From Candidatus Bathyarchaeota archaeon (GTDB taxonomy: Archaea; Thermoproteota; Bathyarchaeia; Bathyarchaeales; Bathycorpusculaceae): DNA of 64,000 nucleotides. Location of the stretch: positions 124,001-188,000 of the forward strand of contig JAOZIA010000022.1 in the NCBI GenBank assembly GCA_026014585.1, read 5' to 3'. The stretch's first letter is position 1. Each line of letters starts with the position of its first letter. Shown here in pieces: positions 43,872-54,347 of the stretch. The notes under the pieces were generated by a model. That model was not told the DNA's origin, did not search any database, and was given only the letters and a program-made list of their open reading frames with translations. The position numbers were made by a program, and so were the translations under genes.

Positions 43872-43897
43872 AAAAATTGCAAAATAACGAAATTCCT

Positions 43898-44282
43898 CGA
43901 ACCTTATATAATCATGAAACCAAAAACTGAAAACAAACAAACTTCCAACTCAACAATCAGCAGTCACACAAAACAGAACCCCTCCAAACCCCCAAACAAA
44001 GTAACCCTAAAGCGACCTCCGCCACATTGAGGCAGATATTACAGTTTTCTGTTTTTTCAAGGCTATGTTTAATCAATTTTAAGCCTGTGTAGCTTCGTTT
44101 TTACCATTTTTAATGCTCCAAACACGTGTTCGTTTTCATTTCAGCAGAGCACAACCCATTTTTTACAGCTCAAAAATCACTAAACCTGTTTTGTAAAAGC
44201 CAAACTTGTTAGGGTACAGTGTAATCTTTGCGGAATTGGTAGTTGAGGTGGACGAAAATTTTTCGTATGGTCACTTTTTACA
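43898..44282 (+). ncRNA. Candidate noncoding RNA gene R1, member of a two-copy family
   Basis: A gene-free 385-bp element that is colinear with R2 (51007-51366, minus strand). Shared blocks in order: (i) an identical 23-nt box starting CGAACCTTATATAATC, which carries a TATA element, at 43898-43920; (ii) TGTAGCT...GTTTTT near 44086-44105; (iii) CAYGTGTT ... TTTCAGCA at 44123-44146; (iv) AATCTTTGC at 44223-44231; (v) a 15-nt palindrome ACGAAAATTTTTCGT directly followed by ATGGTCACTTTTTAC, ending at 44282. Spacing from (i) to (ii), from (ii) to (iii) and from (iv) to (v) is equal or nearly equal in both. No frame is conserved between them, so an RNA product is the simplest explanation. An ORF of 37 codons at 43914 is not kept in R2. 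Confidence 0.5.
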
Positions 44283-44570
44283 CTAAAAAGCTAAAAACAA
44301 GCAGGTTTTCCTTCTAAAATTTCAGCAAATTGTTAAAGCAGCATGATGATTTTTGTTCGGTTGGCTGTACGAGTAGCGAAGTGGAGACAAAAAGTTTAGT
44401 TTTGAAGAAACTGTAAATGAACTGTGACGGTCCAAGAGTCAGGTGCTGATTTGCCAAAAACAAATTCCTGCAACTAATCAGCATAAGCACCACCTAACTA
44501 ACCAAACAAAACTTCAACTAACAGTAAGTTTTATAGGAGCACCCCCGCCAAACTTGTTCATAGGAAAAGT

Positions 44571-45423
44571 ATGAAAAAACTTCACTTCAGGTATTCTTTG
44601 CTTTCTTTTGGCAGTTGCATGCATTGTTTTTCTACAAATTTCAAAGTACTCAAGCATCAACAGATACCACTTGGCACCAATGCCCGAGCGAGCTTCAGGG
44701 ATTTAAGCTGTTGCAGTTAACGATAAAATCTACGTTTTTCACTGACCAGTCACCTACGTTATATGACCCAACAGCAACACTGGAGTCCAAAAAACAGTAT
44801 GCTACCTTGTTATTGATTTGGGGTTGATCAAAGGGCAATGAGATATAGATTATCGGAGGAAATAAACAATTTCCCTCAAACGATAACAGTCTACAGTACC
44901 CTCTCTGATTCTTGAAGCATAAAAAGCAAGCACTGACCTTGCGGGAGCACGGTAGCCAACTGTTGAAGGAAAAAGTTCTGCCATATAATGTTTAAAAGTC
45001 AATGTTACGGGGTTGATGATTGCTACGGCACATATTGGATGTTTATGACCCAGAAATAAATCTACACCGTAAATACTCCTACATAGGATGTGGGTGCCTC
45101 TAACCTGAACCTTGAAGCCTCAATGATATTGCAACCACGGGACTGCATGCGCCACAGAGCTACGGTATAGACAGCACTAAGCAACAACACTTTAGCGGTA
45201 AACAAACAGAGGCAGTAGAAACATGTACCACTTTAAGATATGGCGCAGCAATGCCACCAGCAGCCCAGAAAAGCACACACTATCCTAACAGAAAACATTA
45301 CACTAATCGCTGGAGAAATAGTTGCAGCAGTTATCACAGTCACAACTGGTACAGCACACCATTTCAAGCTTCCTAGGAAACGCCTCAAAGTCAACCATCA
45401 ACATGTTTCTTATTTTAGATAAG
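44571..45423 (+). pseudogene. Decayed secreted kelch-repeat protein gene
   Basis: Translation in alternating frames gives a surface kelch protein of the same plan as the intact gene at 5864-7117, but with many frameshifts and stops. In order: ATG 44571 followed by a signal-peptide-like stretch (LCFLLAVACIVFL in one frame), DTTWHQCP in the next frame, then AVAVNDKIYVFH (about 44711-44746), which is a typical kelch strand, YDPTATLES, then VYDPEINLHRKYSY (about 45040-45081) in another frame, and finally a C-terminal anchor TLIAGEIVAAVITVTTG followed by a basic end near 45300-45395. The order of signal peptide, repeats and anchor is kept. A ribosome binding site (TAGGAAAAG) is still in front of the ATG. 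I conclude that it is a relic of a once-expressed paralog. Confidence 0.6.
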
Positions 45424-45572
45424 GAACAAAAGAACAAGATAGTACGCAGGCTAGTTTAAACAAGGTTAACTGTCTGTAAACACAAACGCTTGCGCAGGTT
45501 TTAAGCAGAAAAAATTTTTGTTTAGCTTTGATTGCTGCACTCCAGAGCATATACCGCCGGCTTTTGAGTAGC

Positions 45573-45639
45573 TTTACCTGTTGACATCACCAGACCCCGC
45601 CAACTAAGTTGTCTATCAACAGGGGCATCACCAGGTAAA
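45573..45639. other. Two competing hairpins in noncoding sequence
   Basis: TTTACCTG (45573-45580) is complementary to CAGGTAAA (45632-45639), while the overlapping CCTGTTGA (45577-45584) is complementary to TCAACAGG (45616-45623). The two perfect 8-bp stems share CCTG, so only one can form at a time. A small palindrome CAACT-A-AGTTG (45601-45611) is inside, and CATCACCAG occurs twice (45585-45593, 45626-45634). This is the pattern of a structural switch or of the remains of a mobile element. Confidence 0.35.
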
Positions 45640-46067
45640 AACAAAAAATCTGCCTTCCAAACCTGCACAAAACAGCTCACCCCCAAAAAAGTCATGGCCA
45701 AAAACCAGATCCAACCCAGCAGAGATTAACATTTTTTCTTACTTGTGCAATGTTGCCTTCTTATGGTTTTGTGCACACCTGTTGCTTGTCTGATACACTG
45801 CTGGATGGGCTGGGGGATGATAAATCATGAGCTCAGGTCGGGCTAAAAATTTCGGCTACTCGATAAAATTATTTGTGCAAAAAACAGTCATTTTAAGCTT
45901 ATTTTGGCATAGCGACGAGTTTTTTGCGTTGTTTTATAACGAAACACAATGCCTCAAAAATCAGCAAATGTTTTATTGTCAAAACACAAAACAAAAAGCC
46001 CTAAAAACCCCCAAAAAACAAAAACCAACCTGATTTAGCCTTATTTGCCTTTCCCTTGGGGTATTGG

Positions 46068-46115
46068 CATGGAGAATATCGGGGCCTCATATAAGTACCT
46101 ACGAAAATCTCCATG
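46068..46115. other. Long-loop hairpin in noncoding sequence
   Basis: CATGGAGA (46068-46075) and TCTCCATG (46108-46115) make a perfect 8-bp stem closing a 32-nt loop with a TATA-like CATATAAG in it. It lies left of the minus-strand motif copy at 46282 and could end a short transcript from there. Confidence 0.3.
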
Positions 46116-46281
46116 CGAAGCAAAAATTGGGTTTTTCGAGAACCCTTCGAGTAAAATAATTGCTTTTGGGATCTTTTTGCAATCTTTGAGTTTCTAGAGA
46201 GAGGCGCTCTGGTTTTTTCTGATTGCTGAGGTTTGCTTTGAAAAATTTTTGCGGGGGTTGGGAAGCGAATTTTTTGTTGAA

Positions 46282-46311
46282 TGTGTTGGTTTGGTTGATG
46301 CTTTTGTATAT
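46282..46311 (-). promoter_or_regulatory. 26-nt motif, copy 1
   Basis: Read on the minus strand: a TATA-like TATACAAAAGCATCAACC followed by AAACCAACACA, a four-base longer variant of the motif also found at 46532, 50417, 52178 and 54322. No protein gene starts downstream on the minus strand, so it may drive a short RNA or be a decayed copy. Confidence 0.4.
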
Positions 46312-46531
46312 GGTTGATTGTGGTTGCGTGTTTTGCATGTGTTGGGTGGTTTTGTTTGTGTTGCTTTCTTGTATGGGTGCTTGGTTTGTTGGCGTTTAGT
46401 GTAGCCTACAGCAACCATATTTTTATTGCATTGATGTTGAGAAATTCATTTGTGGTGGTTCTGGTGAATTCAGTATTGTCATTTGGTTTATCCATCACCA
46501 TGAGTTTCCGCAGTCACCCAAACCAAAACCT

Positions 46532-46557
46532 GTATACGAAAGCATCACCCAAACACA
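46532..46557 (+). promoter_or_regulatory. 26-nt motif, copy 2, promoter of hjc
   Basis: GTATACGAAAGCATCACC followed by CAAACACA. Its TATAC part is 76-80 bp upstream of the hjc start, so transcription would begin near 46559 with a leader of about 55 nt. Confidence 0.5.
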
Positions 46558-46613
46558 GTTTCCACAGCAACTTTTATCTCTAAAGCAATACAAACAGGAA
46601 AGAGGCATTAAGG

Positions 46614-47048
46614 ATGAGTAAAGAAATCGACCGAGTGCGCCTAAGACGCTGGCGCAAAAGAGGATTCTACAGTGAAACTGTCCTAGTTAAGCTTCTTCAG
46701 AAAAAAGGTTACCATGCCGTACGCATCCCCGTAAGCAACCCCAGCCTAAGCCCACTACCGGACCTTATTGCTCGAAGAGGCATACACACCTACGCGTTTG
46801 AGGTAAAAAACGCCACCTACTACGCATACTATCCTCAATCACAAATCGACAAACTCTTCCGTTTCCTAAACGAGTTCATCACCTCAAACAAAGAATACAA
46901 ACACGCCGTTGTAGCTGCTCATCTTGGTAAGCGATGGCTATTCAAAGAAATTGCATGGGACGATTGGGAAAAAGGCAAGCTCCCAGATAAAGTGCGGATT
47001 TTAAAGCGTGACCGCGGAAACTTTAACGCAGACACCAGCTACGCCTAA
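46614..47048 (+). CDS. hjc: Holliday junction resolvase Hjc
   Basis: A 144-aa archaeal resolvase of the PD-(D/E)XK nuclease superfamily that cleaves four-way DNA junctions during recombination and fork repair. The active-site residues are E21 in RKRGFYSETVLVKLL, D50 in LSPLPDLIARR, E63 and K65 in YAFEVKNATYYAYY, and the conserved Q-x-x-K-L in SQIDKLFRF. The N-terminal basic R-x-R-R-W-R-K-R-G is typical. The first ATG after AAAGAGG is used. The length is that of the family. The gene stands alone with the 26-nt motif as its likely promoter. The C-terminal tail from residue 110 onward is longer than in the smallest Hjc proteins. Confidence 0.93.
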   Translation: MSKEIDRVRLRRWRKRGFYSETVLVKLLQKKGYHAVRIPVSNPSLSPLPDLIARRGIHTYAFEVKNATYYAYYPQSQIDKLFRFLNEFITSNKEYKHAVVAAHLGKRWLFKEIAWDDWEKGKLPDKVRILKRDRGNFNADTSYA

Positions 47049-47117
47049 GCGGTAAATGAGTGTACCTCAAAACTATATAATAAGAAAGGAAACATAGCAA
47101 CAGAGGAGACGCAACCA

Positions 47118-47801
47118 TTGAACGATTTGATAATGGTGCAAACAAAGTCGCTAACAAAAAATTACCCCATAGGCGAAACCCAAGTTGACGTCTTAAAAAA
47201 CATCAATCTCACCATCCCCAAAGCCCAATTCACAGTAATCTATGGTCCCTCAGGCGCAGGAAAAACGACGCTGCTAAACATCATCGGCGGAATCGACAAG
47301 CCCACCAGCGGAGAAATCATAGTTGCCCAAAAAAACCTAACCGCACTGGATGAAAATGCGCTTTCAGATTTTAGATGTAATCAAATAGGCTTTATTTTCC
47401 AAGCATACAATCTGGTTTCCACTTTAACGGTGGCTGAGAATGTTGCTTTTCCCATGGAGTGGACACGAAAACCCGCAGAAGAAATAGAACAAAGAGTCCA
47501 GCAGCTTCTGCAAACCGTCGGTTTAGAGAGTAGAGCCAACCATTTTTCATCCCAACTAAGCGGCGGCGAACAGCAACGGGTCGCATTTGCCCGAGCCTTA
47601 GCCAACGACCCACCCGTCATTCTTGCAGATGAACCCACAGGCAATTTAGACACAAAAAATGCCAAAAAAATCCTTCAAGTTCTCCAGTTACTCAAATCTG
47701 AAGGCAAAACTGTTATTATTTCAAGCCATGATGTGGAGATTCGAGGCTTAGCAGATCAGGTTTTGATGTTGGACAACGGGGTTTTGGCGGTTAAAAAATG
47801 A
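47118..47801 (+). CDS. ABC transporter ATP-binding protein, LolD/MacB type
   Basis: A 227-aa ATPase. Walker A is [15 protein letters not shown] (about residues 36-50), the Q-loop [19 protein letters not shown] and the signature [19 protein letters not shown] are typical of the MacB/LolD/FtsE group, and Walker B is [17 protein letters not shown] with the switch His in [10 protein letters not shown]. Together with the overlapping FtsX-like permease it should form a mechanotransmitting ABC system that exports or extracts molecules at the membrane. TTG 47118 has AGAGGAG 10 bp before it; ATG 47133 is an alternative. A TATA box CTATATAATA is at about 47076-47085. Confidence 0.95.
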
Positions 47802-49645
47802 GCAGTACTTCTTTTCCTGTTAATGATTTGTTGCGTAGAAGGCTTCAAACAGGTTTAACTGTTACAACATTGACGTTGAGTGTTGCTTCAACGCTGTTTT
47901 TGTTGCTTTTCAGTTTAAGAGTTGAGTTTGATATTAGGGCGCAAGGTGTTTTGACTATTGGGTCAGCTATTTATACGCAGTTTTTGCTTTTTATTTTAGT
48001 CATAATTTTCATTGTTGGCGCTGTTCTTACTTCGTTTATCATTTTTTTGATGATGCACCAGCGCACACGCGACATCGGATTAATCAAGGCTGCAGGCTGC
48101 CCAAACCGCTTAATCGCAGGCTACTTCATCACAGAACTGCTAACCGTAACCGCAATAAGCTGCATTTTAGGCGTCATATCGGGATTTTTAGCGGATTTTG
48201 CCGCAGCAAACTTGATCCTGCAAACCAGTCAAATGCCAAATTTGTGGTGTGGTCTGTTTGTTTTTGCACTTTTTTTCGGTTTAGCCCTATTTTTCGGGCT
48301 TAAACCCATATCAAACGCTGCCAAAATGTCCCCTATAGCCGCGCTTTCACCTGTTACCTATTATCATCCAACTGCAGAAAAAAAGCATAAAGCGCTCTCA
48401 AAGCGGGGTTTAACTTGGAGAATTGCTCAGCGAAGCCTGTTTAGGCGTCAATCGGCAAATGTACGCATTATTGTTTTGCTTTCAGCAGTTTTTGTTTTAC
48501 TTACCATTTCGATTGCGGGAAGCATTATTGCCCGTGATACCACAACAGTTTGGGTTCAAGGTGCTGTGAATAAAGATGCGGTGGTTATAGCGCACAGTAG
48601 CATGGGCGCGCAGTATGTTAATTTGTTGTCAACGTTTAGCGGTGCAACGATGGTGGAAAATTTTAACTATTTAGACCCCAAGCTTGCTATCCCTGACACT
48701 GTAACTCAACAGTTGAACGCTATGGAGGAGATTGCTTTTGATGCAAGATTAATTCTTGAAAGCCATGTTTACGAAATCGGAAACTACACAATTATTGACC
48801 AAGTAACCTATTCTGTGGGAGACAATAGGGAAGGAGACTCCTTAATAATAGGTCTTAATCCAGAAACTTTTGATTCCGCCAACCTTAACGGGCACACAAT
48901 AACCAGTGAACATGAAGCAATCATTGGCGATTCTCTGGCAAACCTTATGTATTCTCCCTCAGGACAAAAAATTGCACGTGCAGACCCCCTTGTTGAAGCC
49001 ATAAAAATCCAAAACACAACCTACAACATTGTAGGCGTAACTGTAGACCCAACAATGAACGGCATAGTAACCTACATCCCACTAAAAGCCCTGCAAAACA
49101 CCCTCAACTACACAGGACACACCCTCATCTACGTACAAATAACCAGCGCTGCCGACAGAGACACCGTGATTTCCCAGTTAAAAAGCACTGTTAAAGCGGT
49201 TGATACTGACTTGGACGTGTTCACTCTTGATGGCGTTGTTGCAGAAAATGTTGCGTTTCTTGCTTCTACATGGTCTTTGATTCTGCTTTTGCCTCTGTTT
49301 TCCATGGTTTCAGCTGCGCTTTGTCTTGCAGGTTACATGATGCTTGCAGCAGATGAGCAACGTCAGGAACTGGGGGTTTTACGTGCAGTAGGCGCAAAAC
49401 CAGGCATCATCACTTCGGTTATGTCAATTCAGGCTTTAATTGTGCTTTTTTCAAGCTTTGGGGCTGGATTAACGCTTGGGGCTTCTATAACGGTTATGAT
49501 TCTGATGCCCAATCCCGTTATCTCAGCATTCACGATCATCGAGATTGCAGTCTGGTTCTTTGCAGCTATAACGGCAATGTTTGTTTTGTGCCTGTACCCA
49601 GCGTTGAGGCTTCAAAAATCATCCATTCTACGACTCATCGCTTAG
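47798..49645 (+). CDS. MacB/FtsX-type ABC permease
   Basis: A 615-aa permease. Helix 1 is near residues 18-35, the first FtsX-like three-helix block spans about 60-190 (IVGAVLTSFIIFLMMHQRTRDIGLIKAAGCPNRLIAGYF is the coupling region), a further helix is near 225-245, a large extracytoplasmic domain covers about 250-485, and the second FtsX block is at 490-612 (LCLAGYMMLAADEQRQELGVLRAVGAKPGIITSVM). The doubled FtsX block is like LolC/E- or YvrN-type exporters. The ATG overlaps the stop of the ATPase gene by 4 bp (ATGA). Its 3' end overlaps the convergent nuclease gene by 18 bp. Substrate unknown; lipoproteins or peptides are usual. Confidence 0.92.
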   Translation: MSSTSFPVNDLLRRRLQTGLTVTTLTLSVASTLFLLLFSLRVEFDIRAQGVLTIGSAIYTQFLLFILVIIFIVGAVLTSFIIFLMMHQRTRDIGLIKAAGCPNRLIAGYFITELLTVTAISCILGVISGFLADFAAANLILQTSQMPNLWCGLFVFALFFGLALFFGLKPISNAAKMSPIAALSPVTYYHPTAEKKHKALSKRGLTWRIAQRSLFRRQSANVRIIVLLSAVFVLLTISIAGSIIARDTTTVWVQGAVNKDAVVIAHSSMGAQYVNLLSTFSGATMVENFNYLDPKLAIPDTVTQQLNAMEEIAFDARLILESHVYEIGNYTIIDQVTYSVGDNREGDSLIIGLNPETFDSANLNGHTITSEHEAIIGDSLANLMYSPSGQKIARADPLVEAIKIQNTTYNIVGVTVDPTMNGIVTYIPLKALQNTLNYTGHTLIYVQITSAADRDTVISQLKSTVKAVDTDLDVFTLDGVVAENVAFLASTWSLILLLPLFSMVSAALCLAGYMMLAADEQRQELGVLRAVGAKPGIITSVMSIQALIVLFSSFGAGLTLGASITVMILMPNPVISAFTIIEIAVWFFAAITAMFVLCLYPALRLQKSSILRLIA

Positions 49646-50335
49646 GTGCCCAAAACTTTTGGGGATAAACCGTAGAGTGTTTGCATATGCGGGCAACTGA
49701 AGAAGAAAATCTTGGAGTTGCAGAACTGGCACGATGGGCACGTCAAAGACGAATTTGAAACTACTGGGCAACAGGCTAAGCACTGCAGGCACAAACTTGG
49801 CGCTGTCCCATTGTGTACAGTCCAGGTTTAATTTGGGGTTTGGCAAGGTGTCTGCAAGGGCTTTGGTGCGGTCAATTTGGCTGTTGACAATCTTTTTGAG
49901 TGCAGATGGCGCAATTGCATGATGGTAATGTTTGCAGTCTATGCATATGACCAGAGGTTTTTTGCATCCCACTACATCTATTTCCCAGCGGCGACCGTTG
50001 CCTTTGAAGCGCACGTTTTTGGAGACAGAAAAATTGTTGTTACGAAGGGCTGTTGCGGCGATTTCTTCGAATTCTTGCCAGCAGAGTAAGTTGCTTATGT
50101 CTTCGATGTTGTAGCCTGATGTGGCTGAAAGCACGGCTAATTGAAGCCTACCTTGCGTTTCTACATGCACAGAATCACCTGTTAAATATAGGAGGTTTTG
50201 GTTTTGTAGTTTTTGAAGCAACTTTTCAACAATATCCAAAGGCAAGCGTGAGTCATTTTTAACATCTTTAATTAAAGCAGGCGTTTCTTTGGTGAGTTTA
50301 AGCAGCGAAATAAACAATTTACACTCAAAACTCAC
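49628..50335 (-). CDS. Mrr-like restriction endonuclease fold protein with N-terminal wHTH
   Basis: About 235 aa. The N-terminal 75 residues resemble a winged helix (LLKLTKETPALIKDVKNDSRLPLDIVEKLLQKLQNQNLLYLTGDSVHV). The C-terminal part has the PD-(D/E)XK pattern of the Mrr-cat/RecB group: helix LCWQEFEEIAATALRNN, then strand GNGRRWEIDVVG with the active-site Asp, and CIDCKHYHH with the catalytic Lys. The D-x13-DCK spacing fits archaeal Mrr-like nucleases. The start is a GTG at 50335 because GGGGGTGAT stands a few bases upstream; the frame goes 12 codons further. Mrr proteins cut modified DNA, while archaeal relatives may act in repair; neighbours (hjc, an ABC exporter, YjbQ) do not decide. 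Confidence 0.75.
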   Translation of the reverse strand: MSFECKLFISLLKLTKETPALIKDVKNDSRLPLDIVEKLLQKLQNQNLLYLTGDSVHVETQGRLQLAVLSATSGYNIEDISNLLCWQEFEEIAATALRNNNFSVSKNVRFKGNGRRWEIDVVGCKKPLVICIDCKHYHHAIAPSALKKIVNSQIDRTKALADTLPNPKLNLDCTQWDSAKFVPAVLSLLPSSFKFVFDVPIVPVLQLQDFLLQLPAYANTLRFIPKSFGHLSDES

Positions 50336-50416
50336 AACATCACCCCCAACAATTAAACAAATAACATGCAATTTTTGGTTTTTTCAAGATTTAAAGGCAA
50401 CACCCGCAAGTTTTTG

Positions 50417-50442
50417 GTATACAAAAGCATCAACCAAACACA
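50417..50442 (+). promoter_or_regulatory. 26-nt motif, copy 3, promoter of yjbQ
   Basis: GTATACAAAAGCATCAACC followed by AAACACA, the consensus form of the motif. With TATA at 50418-50422 transcription would begin near 50445, about 37 nt before the ATG at 50482. Confidence 0.5.
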
Positions 50443-50481
50443 CTAATAAAGCCTTAAGCTCAAATAATCTTGGAGATGAAC

Positions 50482-50898
50482 ATGTCTGAATTCAAGGTTT
50501 TCAACCAAACAATCCATTTTAGCACCCAAGGCGATATCGACTTTATAGACCTAACCGAAAAAACTCAAAATGCCGTAAACACCTCAGGCATCAAAAACGG
50601 CATCGTCCACGTCTTTGCCCCCCACGCAACAGGCATCCTAATCCTAACCGAAAATGACCCCGACCTGCTCAGCGACATCAAAGACTTCCTCCAAGAACTC
50701 GCACCCAAACACGGCACCTATAATCACCCTTCAAATGCCCATGCACACCTACGCTCTATGATGCTGCCACCTGACAAGACGTTGCCTGTAATCGGGGGAC
50801 GCGTGGAATATGGAACGTGGCAGTCGTTGCTTTTTGTGGAAACCGACGTTTACCCACGCAAACGAATGGTTATAATTCAGGTTTTAGGTGAGCAGTAG
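50482..50898 (+). CDS. YjbQ/UPF0047 family protein
   Basis: A 138-aa protein of the YjbQ family, for which weak thiamine-phosphate synthase activity has been shown in bacteria. The family signature is complete: GIVHVFAPHATGILILTENDP (two parts), with His in PHATG, then HGTYNHPSNAHAHLRSMMLP and GRVEYGTWQSLLFVETD, followed by RKRMVIIQVLGE at the end. Several histidines probably bind a metal. I use ATG 50482, with GGAG 6 bp upstream; TTG 50470 and ATG 50476 lie in or before the ribosome binding site. The length is exactly that of the family. Real role in archaea unknown. Confidence 0.93.
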   Translation: MSEFKVFNQTIHFSTQGDIDFIDLTEKTQNAVNTSGIKNGIVHVFAPHATGILILTENDPDLLSDIKDFLQELAPKHGTYNHPSNAHAHLRSMMLPPDKTLPVIGGRVEYGTWQSLLFVETDVYPRKRMVIIQVLGEQ

Positions 50899-51006
50899 TT
50901 TCTGCTTTTCGCTTTTCACATTCTGGCTTTTCGTAATTTACCATGCTATTTTACCTATTAAATGATAAACGCATAAGTTAGTAAGCAATTTTTTAACTGT
51001 TTATTG

Positions 51007-51366
51007 TAAAAAGTGACCATACGAAATTTTTTCGTTCACTATCACAGTTTCTACGGCAAAGATTTCAATCCAACAAAACAAATTCAGCCACAACAAGACC
51101 GCCAGTCACCTCATGCTGAAACAAAAAAGGAAAAACACATGAACAAACCAACGTCTTCAACCAAAAACCTCAGCTACAAGTACACAAATAAAAAAATCTC
51201 CCAAAATTTATGTCTTCATGTCAGTAGGTTACCAAAAAAATGCTGACAGAATCCTGAAAATCAGCAAAAACCCGGACAGTCACATGAAAAAAGAGGTTTG
51301 ACCAGAAACGCGACCGCAAAGTCTTAAGGGACTAACTTTTACAGTTTCATGATTATATAAGGTTCG
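51007..51366 (-). ncRNA. Candidate noncoding RNA gene R2, member of a two-copy family
   Basis: A minus-strand element of 360 bp colinear with R1 (43898-44282). The 23-nt TATA-containing box is at 51344-51366 and identical to that of R1; block (ii) lies near 51161-51180, block (iii) at 51114-51141, AATCTTTGC near 51056-51064 and the 3' palindrome ACGAAAAAATTTCGT with the following ATGGTCACTTTTTAC at 51007-51035. The palindrome differs inside from that of R1 but keeps its 6-bp arms. A possible stem TGCTGA/TCAGCA is in the first half (near 51241-51270). The pncA terminator directly precedes the box, so R2 should be an independent unit. No open frame is shared with R1. Confidence 0.5.
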
Positions 51367-51375
51367 TTTTACTTC

Positions 51376-51398
51376 GAAAAATGGGAGCTTATTGCTCC
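51376..51398 (-). terminator. Hairpin terminator at the end of pncA
   Basis: GGAGC (51384-51388 on the plus strand) and GCTCC (51394-51398) form a 5-bp stem that contains the pncA stop codon in its AATAA loop, followed on the minus strand by ATTTTT. This is a compact factor-independent terminator right before the promoter box of R2. Confidence 0.5.
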
Positions 51399-52168: not shown

Positions 52169-52177
52169 GGTTACAAC

Positions 52178-52203
52178 TGTGTTTTGGTGATGCTTTTGTA
52201 TAC
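52178..52203 (-). promoter_or_regulatory. 26-nt motif, copy 4, promoter of pncA
   Basis: On the minus strand GTATACAAAAGCATCACC followed by AAAACACA. The motif covers the region from the TATA box to the probable start of transcription of pncA, as an operator would. It lies in the gap shared with nnrDE, whose own TATA-like CTTATATTTTC is at about 52216-52226. Confidence 0.55.
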
Positions 52204-52246
52204 GAGACAGTTAGGCTTATCTTATATTTTCACTCAATAGTACCCC

Positions 52247-54321: not shown

Positions 54322-54347
54322 TGTGTTTTGGGGATGCTTTTGTATAC
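54322..54347 (-). promoter_or_regulatory. 26-nt motif, copy 5
   Basis: On the minus strand GTATACAAAAGCATCCCC followed by AAAACACA. A transcript from here would run antisense into tsr3; no minus-strand gene is present, so the copy may serve an antisense RNA or be a relic. Confidence 0.4.

What the first reader, a model, noticed from the sequence alone, without database searches (positions are those of the whole stretch)
43898..44282. Two-copy family of noncoding elements with shared promoter box and 3' palindrome (R1)
The element at 43898-44282 (+) and that at 51007-51366 (-) share, in the same order and strand sense, an identical 23-nt box that begins CGAACCTTATATAATC, the internal blocks TGTAGCT..GTTTTT, CAYGTGTT..TTTCAGCA and AATCTTTGC, and a 3' end with a 15-nt palindrome followed by ATGGTCACTTTTTAC. 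Box-to-block-ii spacing is about 193 vs 191 bp, ii-to-iii about 32 in both, and iv-to-end 41 in both. Between the blocks the sequences differ strongly and no reading frame is kept. This looks like selection on a promoter, a fold and a terminator-like end: an undescribed ncRNA family, roughly 330-360 nt long.
Basis: seen in the sequence. Interest (0 to 1): 0.78.

Follow-up and report, generated by a model that had tools for sequence, protein, structure and literature searches.

The report
Helically phased curved-DNA elements in Bathyarchaeia
The two matching stretches are copies of a conserved DNA element (two fixed boxes separated by freely changing but rhythmically bent DNA, held on the same face of the helix) in one chromosomal locus of an uncultured archaeal family; they look like an undescribed site for a DNA-wrapping protein complex, not like genes for a folded RNA.

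Summary
The two copies are real and belong to a family found in all 32 genomes of the genus (related named records: Candidatus Bathycorpusculum, Bathyarchaeia) and in several sister genera. There are up to three syntenic copies per genome, converging on a single-copy conserved core.

What is conserved is geometry of double-stranded DNA. The distance between the 5' box (CGAA-N6-CGAA-NN-TTATATA-NN-CAT) and the 3' box (CGAA-N7-CGAA...TTTTTACANTAAACAGTTAAAA) varies from 179 to 437 bp, but in steps of 10.4 bp (p<5e-5). A- and T-tracts inside recur every 10.4 bp, in phase with each other and with both boxes (z about 20). Other intergenic DNA lacks this. Both results were repeated in 21 elements from other genera.

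Best explanation: a bipartite, intrinsically curved nucleoprotein site whose ends are bridged on one helical face, with looped or histone-wrapped DNA between them, in a locus laid out like a replication origin or centromere. The structural part is well supported; the role is inferred and untested.

The parts
43888..43915 (+). R1 (position E3): BOX5, CGAA-N6-CGAA-NN-TTATATA-NN-CAT
43916..44252 (+). R1 interior: unconserved sequence with phased A/T-tracts; box-to-box distance 365 bp
   Evidence: weaker with the AAA/TTT measure alone (p=0.26)
44253..44296 (+). R1: BOX3, CGAA doublet 11 bp apart + TGGTCACTTTTTACA.TAAAAAGCTAAAA
51349..51376 (-). R2 (position E2): BOX5
51035..51348 (-). R2 interior: strongest 10.4-bp A/T-tract periodicity in the 64-kb window; box-to-box distance 342 bp
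50991..51034 (-). R2: BOX3
46064..46150 (+). Single-copy conserved noncoding core between the converging elements, ending in an inverted CGAA doublet (TTCG-N7-TTCG, 46135-46149)
46297..46311 (-). 'tatac' motif (GTATACAAAAGCATC), left member of the divergent pair
46532..46546 (+). 'tatac' motif, right member of the divergent pair (235 bp apart; pair spacing is also helically phased in relatives)
50417..50431 (+). 'tatac' motif between the NERD and UPF0047 genes
52189..52203 (-). 'tatac' motif between isochorismatase-family and nnrD-like genes, where relatives carry element E1 (absent here)

Best explanation
Each element is a bipartite architectural DNA site. A sequence-specific protein (unidentified) binds the CGAA doublets at both ends; BOX5 also carries a TATA-like core. 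The 180-440 bp between the boxes is under selection not for sequence but for helical phase: boxes on the same face and in-phase A/T-tracts, so that the DNA is intrinsically curved and can be closed into a loop or wrapped on archaeal histone, which this genome encodes. Two or three such sites converge on a single-copy core with an inverted pair of 'tatac' motifs, and together form one large nucleoprotein locus whose layout is that of a chromosome-maintenance site (replication origin or centromere-like locus). Shown here: conservation, synteny, phasing, phased A-tracts, absence of fold and frame. Inferred: protein bridging, looping or wrapping. Conjecture: the origin/centromere role (about 0.4).
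For: Box spacing periodic at 10.4 bp, R=0.57, n=70, p<5e-5; E1, E2, E3 and unplaced copies show the same phase, 9.1-9.6 bp; survives thinning and group-jitter nulls, p<=0.0011. A/T-tract periodicity z=19.7 and locked to both boxes; 2.67-fold over shuffles versus 1.02 in other intergenic and 1.13 in coding DNA; AAA and TTT in phase to 0.14 bp, 82% of 91 elements above 95% of own shuffles for the AA/TT vector sum. Repeated in 21 elements of other genera: spacing p=0.001, tracts z=11.7. Fixed synteny around a single-copy core. Histone gene present.
Against: No protein, binding or curvature experiment. R1 taken alone is not significant with the AAA/TTT measure. Phase in other genera is shifted by about 1.7 bp (V-test z=1.9). 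GC-skew does not settle origin versus terminus and Orc1 genes lie on other contigs. One other distance (tatac to BOX5 of E3) also gave p=0.003.
Confidence: 0.7

Rival explanations
1. An undescribed structured ncRNA family with promoter and terminator.
For: TATA/BRE-like 5' box, T5 run in the 3' box, fixed strand sense, no frame.
Against: No fold signal in 70 elements, no Rfam match, no sequence homology between interiors; helical phasing is unexpected for an RNA.
Confidence: 0.07
2. A transcription unit whose act of transcription matters (promoter plus terminator, RNA sequence irrelevant), with bent DNA and a looped upstream/downstream site regulating it.
For: Only the ends are conserved; BOX5 resembles an archaeal BRE/TATA promoter, BOX3 contains a T5 run like archaeal terminators (from general knowledge). 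Compatible with looping.
Against: The CGAA doublet is in BOX3 too and is not seen at tRNA promoters of these genomes; no conserved start-site signal about 25 nt after the TATA.
Confidence: 0.2
3. A replication fork trap / terminus: polar sites in convergent orientation stop forks between them.
For: E1/E2 face E3 across the core in nearly all genomes; in G016 genes tend to point towards the locus and cumulative GC-skew has its minimum there.
Against: Known polar terminator sites are short single sites (from general knowledge), not bipartite phased elements; gene-orientation bias is weak and reversed in G014.
Confidence: 0.08
4. A non-autonomous mobile element (MITE-like) with conserved ends.
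For: Conserved ends, variable inside, two to three copies.
Against: At most three copies, always at the same syntenic places; ends are direct, not inverted; no hit in the viral contig collection.
Confidence: 0.02

Closest known systems
Archaeal replication origins with inverted origin recognition boxes (reviewed in PMC4010727; only the abstract was read here)
   Same: Noncoding chromosomal locus with several copies of a roughly 27-nt motif, inverted pairs around unwinding-type DNA, single copy per genome.
   Different: The 'tatac' motif was not matched to any known ORB; Orc1 genes are on other contigs; helically phased bipartite elements are not a described part of archaeal origins as far as I know.
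Budding-yeast point centromere, CDEI-CDEII-CDEIII (from general knowledge)
   Same: Two conserved boxes around an AT-tract-rich spacer whose length, not sequence, is constrained, wrapped on histone.
   Different: Spacer here is 180-440 bp and only moderately AT-rich; two to three copies in one locus; no kinetochore-like protein identified.
SegB sites of Sulfolobales (PMC12284271, abstract read)
   Same: Archaeal DNA sites for a segregation/organising protein that compacts and loops DNA.
   Different: SegB sites are scattered over the chromosome and mostly intragenic; these elements are intergenic, bipartite and confined to one locus.
DNA-loop operators with helical-phase dependence (lac, gal, ara; from general knowledge, and titles)
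   Same: Two binding sites that need the same helical face.
   Different: Here phasing is an evolutionary signature over 91 elements, with phased A/T-tracts between the boxes and no regulated gene evident.
Archaeal dif sites (PMC2958812)
   Same: One conserved noncoding site per chromosome, with flanking conserved sequence and polar motifs pointing to a place in the chromosome.
   Different: The core is not an 11-6-11 bp inverted repeat, the defining form given in that paper.

Membership tests
Structured ncRNA family | Folds more stably than shuffled sequence | tested here: not met
   mean z -0.20 +/- 0.15 over 70 elements; window copies -0.04 and +0.08
Structured ncRNA family | Match to a known RNA family | tested here: not met
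Structured ncRNA family | Covarying base pairs | tested here: inconclusive
   interiors are not alignable, so covariation could not be counted
Structured ncRNA family | Stable transcript | not testable with these tools
   no RNA data
Intrinsically curved / wrapped DNA element | A/T-tracts phased at the helical repeat, beyond genome background | tested here: met
Intrinsically curved / wrapped DNA element | Anomalous gel mobility or wrapping in vitro | not testable with these tools
   needs experiment
Same-face (looped) two-site element | Spacing between sites restricted to multiples of the helical repeat | tested here: met
   repeated
Archaeal replication origin | Adjacent orc1/cdc6 gene | tested here: not met
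   Orc1 genes lie on other contigs, or hundreds of kb away on the same contig (G016:C1), in the six genomes searched
Archaeal replication origin | Inverted copies of an origin-recognition-type repeat | tested here: inconclusive
   inverted, phased 'tatac' pairs are present, but binding by Orc1 is unknown
Archaeal replication origin | Replication-strand skew switches at the site | tested here: inconclusive
   V in G016, mixed elsewhere, dominated by coding-strand bias
Xer/dif site | 11-bp arms with 6-bp spacer, one per chromosome | tested here: not met
   the core is single copy but lacks that form (definition)
Mobile element (MITE-like) | Varied insertion sites and terminal inverted repeats | tested here: not met
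   fixed syntenic sites, direct ends

The most novel reading that the evidence does not exclude
The locus is an archaeal point-centromere or origin organiser: a single chromosomal site where paired CGAA-bound boxes close histone-wrapped, sequence-free curved loops. The same design logic as CDEI-CDEII-CDEIII would then have arisen independently in an archaeon.
Probability: 0.25. Interest if true: 0.93.

Novelty: new variant of a known kind. Interest (0 to 1): 0.73.

Why it matters
It shows selection on DNA shape and helical phase while sequence drifts freely, recorded over about 90 natural variants in one archaeal family. If the locus is the origin or the segregation site, it gives a handle on chromosome maintenance in the largely uncultured Bathyarchaeia. 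It also warns that conserved ends with a variable middle need not mean an RNA gene.

Tried and rejected
Rfam at strict and permissive thresholds: nothing. RNA folding of 70 elements on both strands: no signal (a first version, timed out). Multiple alignment of interiors: no family-wide motif beyond the boxes; 7-mer enrichment weak. Origin by GC-skew: a clear V in G016 but largely due to gene orientation, so not used as proof. tRNA-type promoter: tRNA upstream regions do not carry CGAA-N6-CGAA. dif: the core lacks the 11-6-11 form. Mobile element or virus: no viral contig hit and fixed synteny. Literature: no description found, in an open-licence library only.

Full report
What was checked. The window lies on contig C21 of a 2.3-Mb archaeal genome. 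Close matches to its Hjc-like protein are in records named Candidatus Bathycorpusculum and Candidatus Bathyarchaeota. R1 and R2 are present as described, with the same order and strand sense. They need correction: an invariant second CGAA sits 10 bp upstream of the reported 5' box, and the 3' box extends to TAAACAGTTAAAA.

Family and synteny. The 5' box pattern occurs in 32 of 32 genomes of the genus, 75 matches against 1 for the reversed control. A sequence-only model of the 3' box gives strong hits in nearly all of them and in one sister genus, and in further genera of the family. The copies occupy fixed places: E1 between an nnrD-like gene and an isochorismatase-family gene, E2 between that gene and UPF0047, E3 next to the NERD-domain gene. 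E1 and E2 point towards E3. The window keeps E3 (R1) and E2 (R2); E1 is missing from its place at 52169-52246. Blocks between the elements are inverted in some genomes relative to others (compare L053/L056 with L061/L063 and with the window).

Not a folded RNA. Over 70 elements the mean folding z-score is -0.20 +/- 0.15 on the sense strand and -0.09 +/- 0.12 on the other; the window copies give -0.04 and +0.08. There is no Rfam match. Open stretches are hardly longer than in shuffles (56.9 against 53.5 codons). The internal blocks that suggested RNA homology occur only in the two window copies (one, CAYGTGTT, also in a single other element). They may reflect gene conversion between the copies, or chance.

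Helical phasing. The start-to-start distance from BOX5 to BOX3 runs from 179 to 437 bp in two groups (up to 272, and from 312). The distances are strongly periodic: best period 10.4 bp, R=0.57, n=70, none of 20,000 jittered sets as good. E1, E2, E3 and unplaced copies separately give phases of 9.5, 9.1, 9.6 and 9.5 bp modulo 10.45. Three of four other distances in the same loci show no phasing (p=0.85, 0.42, 0.23); tatac to BOX5 of E3 gave p=0.003, on a narrow cluster of distances. Jittering groups of near-equal lengths together, or thinning them, leaves p<=0.0011.

Curved spacer. A-tracts and T-tracts inside the elements recur every 10.4 bp (z=19.7), with AAA locked to BOX5 and TTT to BOX3. 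The excess over shuffles is 2.67-fold, against 1.02 in other intergenic DNA and 1.13 in coding DNA. AAA and TTT are in phase to 0.14 bp, A-tracts dominate the 5' half and T-tracts the 3' half, and 82% of 91 elements beat 95% of their own shuffles in the planar AA/TT vector sum. In-phase A-tracts are the recognised mark of intrinsically bent DNA (PMC3372288). R2 carries the strongest such signal in the whole window. R1 alone is weaker with the AAA/TTT measure (p=0.26) but above all its shuffles for the AA/TT vector.

Independent repeat. Twenty-one further elements from other genera, collected after the finding, again show phased spacing (p=0.001; unique values p=0.007) and phased tracts (z=11.7). 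The phase itself is shifted by about 1.7 bp, so a test against the genus phase is only marginal (z=1.9).

The rest of the locus. Between the converging elements lies a core kept at about 95% identity over 61 bp among several congeners. It is essentially single-copy: found in 27 of 30 sampled genomes of the genus, 20 of 49 others in the family, and none of 72 in other families of the order. It carries an inverted CGAA doublet 11 bp apart. Near it, in most genomes, is a divergent pair of about 27-nt 'tatac' motifs whose spacing is also phased. The tatac motifs and parts of the gene cluster reach other families of the order. A few single tatac copies lie roughly 10-15 kb from one Orc1 gene and point towards it.

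Mechanism. Best supported is a double-stranded DNA element: two boxes with the same CGAA doublet, presumably bound by the same unidentified protein, kept on one face of the helix by a curved spacer that can be looped or wrapped. The genome encodes an archaeal histone, which makes wrapping plausible. The single-copy core, inverted motif pairs and converging elements suggest a chromosome-maintenance locus. Whether it is an origin, terminus or centromere could not be decided: GC-skew is dominated by coding-strand bias and Orc1 genes lie elsewhere. Transcription from the TATA-like box is possible and untested.

Comparison with the known. It works like a looped or wrapped two-site DNA element and has the layout of origins or point centromeres, but it is not filed as a member of any of these: no Orc1 gene is adjacent, the core is not dif-like, and SegB sites (PMC12284271) are scattered and mostly intragenic. 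As an RNA family it fails the fold test.

Limits. All evidence is computational; genomes are mostly fragmented metagenome assemblies; relatedness was handled only by thinning, grouping and an independent set. The literature search covered an open-licence library only.

Noticed in passing
window 46297-46311 (-), 46532-46546 (+), 50417-50431 (+), 52189-52203 (-), 54333-54347 (-): A roughly 27-nt motif, GTATACAAAAGCATCAMCMAAACACA, recurs in intergenic DNA of this locus, with a divergent pair 226-269 bp apart whose spacing is helically phased; single copies elsewhere in the genome point towards an Orc1 gene. Candidate origin-recognition-type motif.
   Followed up: partly
window 46064-46150: Single-copy conserved noncoding core (TTGGCATGGAGAATATCGGGGCCTCATATAAGTACC...CGAAAATCTCCATGCGAAG), found in the family but in no other family of the order.
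   Followed up: partly
window 43888-51376 against L053, L056, L061, L063: Segments between the elements are inverted in some genomes relative to others; inverted repeated elements at both ends may promote this.
   Followed up: partly
window 44300-46060: About 1.8 kb without a credible gene between R1 and the conserved core, almost unconserved in relatives.
   Followed up: no
window 46614-47048: Hjc-family Holliday-junction resolvase-like protein (PF01870) encoded next to the divergent motif pair in nearly all relatives.
   Followed up: no
downstream of BOX3, e.g. window 44297-44355: A further weakly conserved stretch (about AAA..AA..TAAATTTT-CAT, A/T-tracts about 10 bp apart) 60-90 bp after the start of BOX3, so the element may be longer than the two boxes.
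   Followed up: partly
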